Part shown: one piece after another, positions 6,266 through 8,832 of the stretch
Position numbering within the stretch: the first letter of the stretch is position 1
Layout of the letters: each line of letters opens with the position of its first letter
Assembly: GCF_009730915.1 (NCBI RefSeq)
Contig: NC_052495.1
Location: 310,001-374,000 of the forward strand
DNA length: 64,000 bases
Reading direction: 5' to 3'
DNA from: Dioscorea cayenensis subsp. rotundata
Taxonomy: Eukaryota; Streptophyta; Magnoliopsida; Dioscoreales; Dioscoreaceae
Position numbers and translations under genes: made by a program
Notes under the pieces: generated by a model
Told to the model about the DNA's origin: nothing
The model's input: only the letters and a program-made list of their open reading frames with translations
Databases searched by the model: none

Positions 6266-6681
6266 ATGGCGAACGCCGGAGAGGGAGCGCCGCCGCCGGC
6301 GATCTTTTGGAACGAGAAGGAAGAGAGGTTCGAGACGGAGGACAAGCAAGCGTTCCTTCAATACCACCTTAGAGATGTCTCCGTGGATAACTCGACGAAG
6401 ACGGTGATGGACATGGTCCACACCTTCGTCCCCAGGAGCAAACGGGGCATGGGCTTGGCTGCCATCCTCTGCTCCGCCGCTTTTGACCACGCCCAGCGCC
6501 ATTCCATGGTCGTCATCCCTACCTGCTCTTACATCTCGGTAAATCTGAAATCCCTAATCACATTGTTTGAATTGAATTTCGTGGCTTGATTCTTTGATTT
6601 CTCTTTCAGGATACGTTTCTCCCTCGTTTTCCAGCTTGGAAGTCGATTGTTTATGATGAATGCCTGAAATCTAGTATGTGA
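6266..6681 (+). CDS. Small GNAT-like acetyltransferase (Acetyltransf_CG / NATD1-like)
   Basis: Two exons, 6266-6538 and 6610-6681, give 114 residues. The order of elements fits the short GNAT_CG family (animal NATD1, bacterial YjdJ-type, Arabidopsis At1g21770-type). There is an [20 protein letters not shown] N-terminal strand region, then the [27 protein letters not shown] acetyl-CoA loop and helix (residues 50-77; R-x-x-G-x-G/A pattern as RGMGLA), then [10 protein letters not shown] and the final [10 protein letters not shown]. The substrate is unknown. I chose the ATG at 6266 because the domain starts soon after it; upstream in-frame ATGs encode unrelated sequence. The last ~33 coding bases belong to the first unit of a tandem array that continues to about 8832. 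Confidence 0.85.
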
Positions 6682-8832
6682 ACTTCCCTTGGGATTTCCT
6701 AATTCTCTGTGCAAAACTCTTTACATGCATTAGAGGTTTGTATTGATAAGAATTGCATTTCAAAATCATAAAAATAGAATAATAAAATGCTTCATGTGAA
6801 AATTGTTTTTTGTTTTATCATTGATGGTAATTGTTTATGATGGAGCTTTCCTTGAATCTCTAGTTCTCTGCATGTGCTGCTCATTGCATGCATAAGTTGT
6901 TTCTTTTGATGAGAATTACATCCAGACACATAATTTTGAGCTACTGTGGGATAATAACATGCTTTCTGTGAAAATTGCTGTTTGTTTGATCATTAATGGG
7001 AATTTTTTATGATGAATACCTGAAATCCTGTATATGAACTTCCTTGCAATTTCTGCTTTTCTGCATGTGCATCTATTGGCATACTTGATGAGAATTGCAT
7101 TGATACACATGATTTTGAGCTACTGTGGGATAATAACATGCTTTCTGTGGAAATTGCTGTTTGTTTGATCATTAATGGAAATTTTTTATGATGAATACCT
7201 GAAATCCTGTATATGAACTTCTTTGGAATCTCTGCTTCTCTTCATGTGCATCTCTTTGCATGCTTGATGAGAATTGCATTCATACATATGATTTTTAGCT
7301 ACTGTAGGATAACAACATGCTTTCTATGAAAATTGGTGTTTATCTGATCATTGATGGAAATTTTTTATGATGAATACCTGAAATCCTGTATATAAGTTCC
7401 TTGGAATCTCTGTTTCTCCGCAGGCGCATCTCTTTGCATGCTTGATGAGAATTGCATTCATGCACACAAGTTTTCGGCCACTGACTGTAGGATAATAACA
7501 TGCTTTCTCTGAAAATTGATGTTTATTTGATCATTGATGGAAATTTTTTATAATGAATACCTGAAACCTGTATATGAAGATTCCTTGGAATCTCTGCTTC
7601 TGTTCATGTGCATCTCTTTGCATGCTTGATGAGAATTGCATTCATACACATGATTTTTATCTAATTCAGGATAATAACATGCTTTTTATGAAAATTGGTG
7701 TTTATCTTATCATTGATGGAAATTTTTGATGATGAATACCTGAAATCCTGTATATGAACTTCCTTGGAATCTCTGCTTCTCTTCATGTGCATCTCTTTGC
7801 ATGCTTGATGAGAATTGCATTCATACACATGATTTTTAGCCAGTGTAGGATGATAACATGCTTTCAATGAAAATTGATGTTTATCTGATCATTGATGGAA
7901 ATTTTTAATGATGAATACCTGAAATCCTGTATATGAACATCCTTGGAATCTCTGCTTCTGTTCATGTGCATCTCTTTACATGCTTGATGAGAATTGCATT
8001 CATACACATGATTTTTAGCTAGTGTAGGATAATGATATGCTTTCTATGAAAATTAATGTTTATTAGATCATTGATGGAAATTTTTTAGGATGAATACATG
8101 AAATCCAGTATATGAACTTCCTTGGAATCTCTGCTTCTCTCCATGTGCCACCCTTTGCATGCATAAGATGTTTCTTTTCATGAGAATTGCATTCAGACAC
8201 TCGATTTTTAGATACTGTGGGACAATAACATGCTTTCTGAGAAAATTGCTGTTTGTTTGATCATTGATGGAAATCTTTTATGATCAATTCCGAAAATCCT
8301 GTGTATAAACTTCCTTGGAGTCTCTACTTCTCTGTACAACTCTTCACATGCATAAGATCTTGGTGTTGATGAAAATTGAAATCAGACACTTGATTTTCAG
8401 CAACTGTAGAATAATTAATTTGCTGTTTGTTTGATCATCCATTGAAATTGCTTATGATGATTGCTCGAAATTCTGTATATGAGCTTCCATGGATACCCTA
8501 CTTCTCTGTGCATCATTTTATTTGCATAAGATGTTTGTTTTGATGAGAATTGCATTCAAACACATTATTCTCAGCTACTTTAATATAATAAAATGCTTTT
8601 CTGTATGAATTGCTGTTAATTTGATCATTAATGGTAATTGTTTATGATGAATGTCGTAAATCCTGTATATGAACTTCCTTGGAATCTCTACTTCTTGCAA
8701 CTCTTTTCATGCATAAATGTCAGTGTTGATAAGAATTCGCATTCTATTATGTGATAATAAAATGCTTTATGTGAAAATTGCAATTTGCTTAATCATTACT
8801 GGGAAATGTTCATTAGGATGATTCCATAATTT
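6649..8832. repeat. ~180-bp tandem array, about 12 units, overlapping the GNAT stop codon
   Basis: The unit starts with tttatgatgaatacctgaa and runs through a tgcatgcttgatgagaattg segment and a gataataacatgctttc segment back to ggaaattttt. Unit starts lie near 6649, 6834, 7008, 7187, 7366, 7548, 7728, 7908, 8086, 8276, 8450 and 8641, giving a spacing of about 174-192 bp. The second unit has a ~27-bp internal deletion. Units from 7008 to 8090 are very similar to each other, while the outer ones diverge, as expected from unequal exchange. The first unit contains the end of the GNAT coding exon ([14 protein letters not shown]). Later units keep an equivalent open tail ending in tga. Confidence 0.93.

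What the first reader, a model, noticed from the sequence alone, without database searches (positions are those of the whole stretch)
6649..8832. A ~180-bp tandem array seeded by the end of a coding exon
The first unit contains the last ~11 codons, stop and 3' UTR of the GNAT-like gene. About a dozen units follow, and the period stays near 180 bp. Central units are homogenised and outer ones diverged. Most units keep an open tail equivalent to YDEYLKSCI-stop instead of [14 protein letters not shown]. Most plant satellites have no visible genic origin, so this may be an early stage of satellite birth at a gene's 3' end, at a nucleosome-like period.
Basis: partly seen in the sequence, partly recalled or inferred. 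Interest (0 to 1): 0.72.

Follow-up and report, generated by a model that had tools for sequence, protein, structure and literature searches.

The report
Tandem repeat grown from gene's tail
In a plant genome the last few codons and trailing region of a small conserved enzyme gene were copied head to tail into about twelve units; the row was very probably born from the gene, was found only at that place, does not look young, and no job for it could be shown.

Summary
A 12-unit array (171-193 bp per unit, 6646 to about 8813-8827) begins inside the last coding exon of a two-exon gene for a 114-residue GNAT protein, a homologue of Arabidopsis At1g77540. Unit 1 is the last 11 codons, the stop and 149 bp behind it; 11 diverged copies follow. 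The exon is shared with Arabidopsis, and two decayed gene copies on another contig run from the same exon end into the same 3' flank without a second unit, so the gene end is the source and the array the product. A search of the 584-Mb assembly with unit 7 matched only this array (12 of 12 matches), against an inserted genome-wide satellite. Core units U3-U8 are 85-95% alike; U1 and U10-U12 are 71-79% like all others, as local duplication plus unequal exchange would give. Not borne out: 'early stage' (unit 1 differs by 25-29% from every other unit) and a coding role of the copied tail (no coding signature seen; broken or lost in 3 of 11 copies). Most likely an old, passive, single-locus array just behind a poly(A) site. 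The seed is unusual and well resolved; the process is ordinary.

The parts
6266..6538 (+). GNAT gene exon 1, from ATG
   Evidence: gene model by reading, no transcript; PDB 1xmt, E 7.2e-37, and 2evn, E 7.9e-37; Pfam PF14542, E 2.8e-17
6539..6609 (+). GT-AG intron
   Evidence: sequence; model
6610..6681 (+). GNAT gene exon 2 with stop TGA; array unit 1 begins inside it at 6646
6646..6830 (+). U1: founder unit = last 11 codons, stop, 149 bp of 3' flank
6781..6786 (+). AATAAA, likely poly(A) signal of the gene, 100 bp after the stop
   Evidence: motif only
6831..7001 (+). U2, coding tail mostly lost, keeps the 14-bp segment
7002..8079 (+). U3-U8, core units sharing a 14-bp deletion, 85-95% alike
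8080..8272 (+). U9, keeps the 14-bp segment, otherwise 84-88% like the core
8273..8808 (+). U10-U12, diverged right-edge units; AATAAA in U11 (8587) and U12 (8756)
8809..8827 (+). short in-register remnant or right border of the array
   Evidence: self-BLAST ends up to 8827; similarity further on not significant

Best explanation
A single-locus tandem array born by local duplication of the 3' end of a conserved gene that has no other intact copy in the assembly search. A ~185-bp stretch, starting 11 codons before the stop and running past the AATAAA, was duplicated once (inferred). Unequal exchange, slippage or gene conversion among copies then raised the number to 12, with turnover concentrated in the middle: a derived unit with a 14-bp deletion gave U3-U8, while edge units kept ancestral features and drifted (pattern shown, process inferred). 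The gene keeps its own tail intact. The copies lie in the 3'-flanking or termination region, carry the coding tail only as a passenger, and most likely have no function (inferred).
For: Exon 2 is shared with At1g77540 through the final KSS, so the exon precedes the array; within the 11-codon tail itself 4 of the 10 aligned residues are identical. Two decayed copies on contig C10 are continuous from exon 2 through the unit's start into the 3' flank and show no second unit in about 1.5 kb downstream, 0 of 2. Assembly search with U7: 12 matches, 12 of 12 in this array; with the whole array: this locus and one 49-bp match, which lies in a C10 gene copy. Protein search: the gene's two exons, three rows from the two C10 copies, one row on C4 at E 0.88. 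Unit tree with a C10 copy added: U2-U12 group apart from U1 and C10 with support 85; U10-U12 on long branches, U3-U8 nested. The 14-bp segment is present in U1, U2 and U9-U12 and missing in U3-U8. Edge-centre gradient r = 0.86, p = 0.00045. No coding signature: identity 0.80, 0.81, 0.84 at codon positions 1, 2, 3; the tail ranks 28th of 144 windows, slightly above the median (0.816 against 0.796) (U2's tail is misplaced in that alignment). No Rfam match at 5800-9200; folding at chance level in U7 (z -0.10) and U1 (z -0.32).
Against: No orthologous locus of a related species could be read. The arrayless state rests on two decayed paralogues that stop matching within about 100 bp of the start of unit 1, are 79% alike and share a ~26-bp deletion, so they are hardly independent. 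Their protein matches are weak (E 0.0096, 0.035, 1.2); the DNA matches carry the case. One stray 28-bp reverse match to U11 lies downstream of one of them (E 0.002). No homology at the duplication borders could be shown (p 0.25). U2's lost tail and the grouping of U2 and U9 with the core show that the history is not a simple edge-to-centre series. Lack of function is an argument from silence: no RNA, small-RNA or methylation data.
Confidence: 0.85

Rival explanations
1. An abundant or TE-borne satellite inserted next to the gene and happened to supply or resemble the gene's end.
For: A period near 180 bp is common among plant satellites (general knowledge, recalled).
Against: U7 matches only this array in the assembly, 12 of 12 matches; exon 2 is shared with Arabidopsis; both C10 gene copies carry the same exon end and 3' flank without an array. 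Limits: the U7 search did not report the C10 copies, so strongly diverged single units can be missed; very common words are skipped; drafts can collapse repeats.
Confidence: 0.03
2. An early-stage satellite: a recent gene-end duplication now expanding. (Overlaps with the best explanation except in age and direction.)
For: Genic seed visible; core units up to 95% alike, so copy turnover went on after founding.
Against: U1 differs by 25-29% from every other unit and U10-U12 by 21-29% from all others; K2P U1 to the rest 0.30-0.37; no copies found outside the locus. At a recalled grass-like rate of 6.5e-9 per site per year this is roughly 23-28 million years, an order of magnitude only.
Confidence: 0.1
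3. The array is a working 3' element: repeated poly(A) or termination signals, or a small-RNA-producing repeat that tunes or silences the gene, as single-locus repeats do at maize b1 and pl1. (Compatible with the same origin.)
For: Lies directly behind the stop; AATAAA in U1, U11 and U12 and missing in U2-U10, with AATAAC at that place in 5 of these 9 (U2, U3, U5, U6, U9). Tandem repeats tied to one locus are linked to silencing at b1 and pl1 (PMC3798267, PMC11166354; passages read).
Against: No RNA or methylation data; the A-to-C change fits a single event on the tree; no structure seen in the two units folded.
Confidence: 0.1
4. The repeated tails are alternative last exons or selected micro-ORFs.
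For: 8 of 11 copies keep an open tail to the homologous stop.
Against: Third codon positions no less conserved than first and second; tail lost or broken in U2, U6 and U9; no splice acceptor seen before the copied tails (my reading, no predictor run); the exon before 6646 is not repeated.
Confidence: 0.02

Closest known systems
Satellite DNA born by tandem duplication and non-reciprocal exchange (review PMC12692304)
   Same: Initial tandem duplication followed by amplification; short arrays more heterogeneous than long ones, as passages of that review say; monomer of satellite size.
   Different: 12 units at one locus, no dissemination found. Section 4.1 of the review (read whole) names TEs, rDNA spacers, micro- and minisatellites and older satDNAs as sources; it names no protein-coding gene end.
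3' UTR tandem repeats of plant LTR retrotransposons as satellite seeds (PisTR-A from Ogre; Macas 2009, seen only as cited in PMC9659126 and PMC12692304)
   Same: Tandem repeats seeded in a 3' untranslated region.
   Different: The seed here is a host gene, coding codons included; the unit was not found dispersed.
Maize b1 hepta-repeat (853 bp) and pl1-Rhoades penta-repeat (2092 bp, from about 14 kb 3' of the poly(A) site)
   Same: Tandem array tied to a single gene; the b1 unit is unique to its place in the maize genome, the pl1 array lies downstream of the gene (passages).
   Different: Other unit length and distance (b1 repeats lie about 100 kb upstream); here the unit derives from the gene's own end; no silencing data.
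At1g77540 small GNAT protein (PDB 1xmt, 2evn)
   Same: Homologous over residues 8-113 of 114, E 7.2e-37.
   Different: Concerns the gene, not the array; orthology was not tested.

Membership tests
Satellite DNA (broad sense: non-coding tandem repeats of any array length) | Head-to-tail, essentially non-coding repeat units | tested here: met
   unit 1 alone is partly coding
Satellite DNA (classical sense) | High copy number, long arrays, many loci or heterochromatic blocks | tested here: not met
   12 units at one locus; U7 has 12 of 12 matches here in the 584-Mb assembly. Collapsed or unassembled copies cannot be seen; chromatin state not testable.
TE-derived tandem repeat | Unit derived from a mobile element | tested here: inconclusive
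   Unit 1 begins with the gene's own exon end and the only other assembly match of the array lies in a gene copy, which speaks against a TE source; no TE library was at hand to test the 149-bp 3' flank itself.
b1/pl1-like regulatory tandem repeats | Array found at one locus, linked to one gene | tested here: met
   within the limits of the search
b1/pl1-like regulatory tandem repeats | Small RNAs, heritable silencing depending on copy number | not testable with these tools
   needs small-RNA, methylation and allele data
At1g77540-type GNAT protein | Sequence match over the whole small GNAT domain | tested here: met
   PDB 1xmt_A, residues 8-113 to 3-102; Pfam PF14542, 63.1 bits against cut-off 30

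The most novel reading that the evidence does not exclude
A protein-coding gene's own 3' end, poly(A) signal included, seeded a satellite-sized array that now serves as a tunable terminator or small-RNA-producing repeat for that gene, the lineage that lost AATAAA being the one that spread: a gene-born regulatory pre-satellite whose steps from exon to array can still be read.
Probability: 0.07. Interest if true: 0.65.

Novelty: new member of a known kind. Interest (0 to 1): 0.36.

Why it matters
Where satellite-like monomers come from is often lost. Here the likely source (a conserved exon end), the direction of copying and part of the order of later changes can be read, which makes the locus a clean natural case for how tandem repeats start next to genes and why they may stay small. 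If the array affects the gene's 3' end it would matter more, but nothing here shows that.

Tried and rejected
Rejected: inserted genome-wide satellite; selected repeated peptide or micro-ORF; known RNA family or unusual folding (2 of 12 units folded, + strand only); extension of the repeat into the upstream exon; more diverged units in the flanks (only short hits, E 0.08 or worse upstream and 0.2 or worse downstream). C10 as a syntenic duplicate: 30 kb of C10 against the window gave the gene copy and one other match (75.9% over 390 bp, window 61864-62248, nature not looked into), so no synteny over that stretch. The second C10 copy (L038) was found only by the late protein search.

Background rate: TRF on 24 stretches of 10 kb (240 kb with 5907 N: 20 spaced along C10, 3 around the C10 gene copy, 1 from C25 beside the window) gave 34 rows with period 50 bp or more, 24 of them under 3 copies, and one row with period 100 bp or more and 4 or more copies, which also reads as 51-bp units. 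A small, uneven sample, mostly one contig.

Literature: five searches for gene-derived satellites (21, 0, 1, 14 and 0 papers listed). Of those listed I read passages of two reviews and one whole section; the rest I saw as listings only, so a precedent may sit among them. The library is open-licence only and the terms were narrow; this is no claim of absence from print. (At1g77540) was seen as a listing.

Full report
What is there. The window is C25:310001-374000 of a 584-Mb assembly in 2249 contigs, by its genes a flowering plant. At 6266-6681 lies a two-exon gene (exon 1 6266-6538, GT-AG intron, exon 2 6610-6681) for a 114-residue protein (model by reading, no transcript) that matches Arabidopsis At1g77540, PDB 1xmt and 2evn, over residues 8-113 at E 7.2e-37, and Pfam PF14542. 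From 6646, inside exon 2, a tandem array of 12 units runs to about 8813-8827. Unit 1 is the last 11 codons, the stop and 149 bp behind it.

Is it more than chance. The gene's 36-nt tail recurs in register in 10 of 11 downstream units with 24-31 matches; U2 has lost most of its tail. Elsewhere the best is 22, and 20 simulated windows gave maxima of 21-24. So U6 (24, with an indel) alone would not stand out and U10 (25) barely, but the other eight (28-31) do, as does the array as a whole (self-BLAST E down to 0). The exon before 6646 is not part of the unit (11 junctions tested).

Which came first. Exon 2 is shared with Arabidopsis through the last KSS; in the 11-codon tail itself 4 of 10 aligned residues are identical. 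Two decayed copies of the gene sit on contig C10 (9747014-9747379, minus; 9722214-9722312, plus). Both keep intron sequence and run from the exon end through the unit's first bases into the start of the 3' flank, with a shared ~26-bp deletion. Neither has a second unit in the ~1.5 kb held downstream; the one hit there is a stray 28-bp reverse match to U11 at E 0.002. The two copies are 79% alike over 272 bp, so they are not independent witnesses, and they stop matching within about 100 bp of the start of unit 1, so they do not show what lay beyond. They do show the start of the unit as a single-copy gene end outside the array. The protein search of the assembly gave six rows: two are the gene's exons, three are these C10 copies (E 0.0096, 0.035, 1.2), one is a weak match on C4 at E 0.88.

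How far has it spread. Unit 7 as a query gives 12 matches in the assembly, all 12 in this array; the whole array gives this locus and one 49-bp match, which lies in a C10 gene copy. The tool scores only best candidates and skips very common words; the U7 query did not report the C10 copies, so strongly diverged single units can be missed; a draft assembly can collapse repeats. Strong, not absolute.

How it changed. U3-U8 are 85-95% alike; U1 is 71-75% to all others; U10-U12 are 71-79% to all others; U2 and U9 lie between. U3-U8 lack a 14-bp segment that U1, U2 and U9-U12 keep, U12 with one base missing. In the tree with a C10 copy, U2-U12 group apart from U1 and C10 with support 85; U3-U8 are nested and U10-U12 sit on long branches; supports in the tree of units alone run from 34 to 93. 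Nearest-neighbour distance grows towards the edges (r 0.86, p 0.00045). This is the pattern expected from local duplication and unequal exchange. It also says that the founding is old: K2P between U1 and the rest is 0.30-0.37. U1 differs from the others less in the coding tail (5-8 of 33-34 in nine units, 11 of 34 in U10, 0 of 12 in what is left of U2) than in the 3' flank (36-46 of 131-148), as expected if the gene's own tail is under selection.

Does it do anything. The copied tail shows no coding signature (identity 0.80, 0.81, 0.84 at codon positions 1, 2, 3; 28th of 144 windows, slightly above the median; no formal test, and U2's tail is misplaced in that alignment) and is broken or lost in U2, U6 and U9. 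No Rfam family at 5800-9200, no unusual folding in U7 or U1. U1 has AATAAA 100 bp after the stop; U11 and U12 also have it; AATAAC stands there in U2, U3, U5, U6 and U9, U4, U7 and U8 are altered nearby, and U10 has a deletion. If U1's signal is used, the array lies behind the transcript. Tandem repeats tied to one locus are linked to silencing at maize b1 and pl1 (PMC3798267 and PMC11166354, passages read), so a function is possible, but nothing here points to it.

Comparison with what is known. The review PMC12692304 (section 4.1 read whole; other passages) describes satellite birth by tandem duplication and non-reciprocal exchange and names TEs, rDNA spacers and older tandem repeats as sources; that section does not name a coding gene end. 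PMC9659126 (passages) lists 3' UTRs of retrotransposons. My searches turned up no gene-end case in what I read, but they were narrow, most listed papers were not opened, and the library is partial. I therefore file it as a new member of a known kind: a locally born tandem array with an unusual and well-resolved seed.

Verdict. Observation confirmed; origin from the gene end supported; early stage, dispersal and function not supported.

Noticed in passing
C10:9747014-9747379 (-) and C10:9722214-9722312 (+), loci L002 and L038: Two decayed copies of the GNAT gene in opposite orientation about 25 kb apart, 79% alike over 272 bp, intron sequence kept, sharing a deletion behind the exon end: probably a DNA-level copy of the gene that was then duplicated itself.
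   Followed up: partly
window 34013-35751, 49246-50975, 57632-59333, 62252-64000: A family of related stretches up to ~1.7 kb, 66-83% alike, in both orientations: a gene family or a mobile-element cluster.
   Followed up: no
window 51866-52448 and 59426-59687: Two further short tandem arrays (223 bp x 2.6 and 94 bp x 2.7); self-BLAST shows no link to this unit.
   Followed up: no
window, outside 4800-9600: Two runs of 1000 N each, assembly gaps or withheld stretches; neither touches the gene or the array.
   Followed up: no
window 12110-13285 (+), 24247-25935 (+), 41892-42782 (-), 20014-20541 (-): Neighbouring ORFs match auxin response factor (B3 and ARF_AD), glyoxal oxidase, a mannose-binding lectin (below the curated cut-off) and an AMP-binding enzyme.
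   Followed up: no
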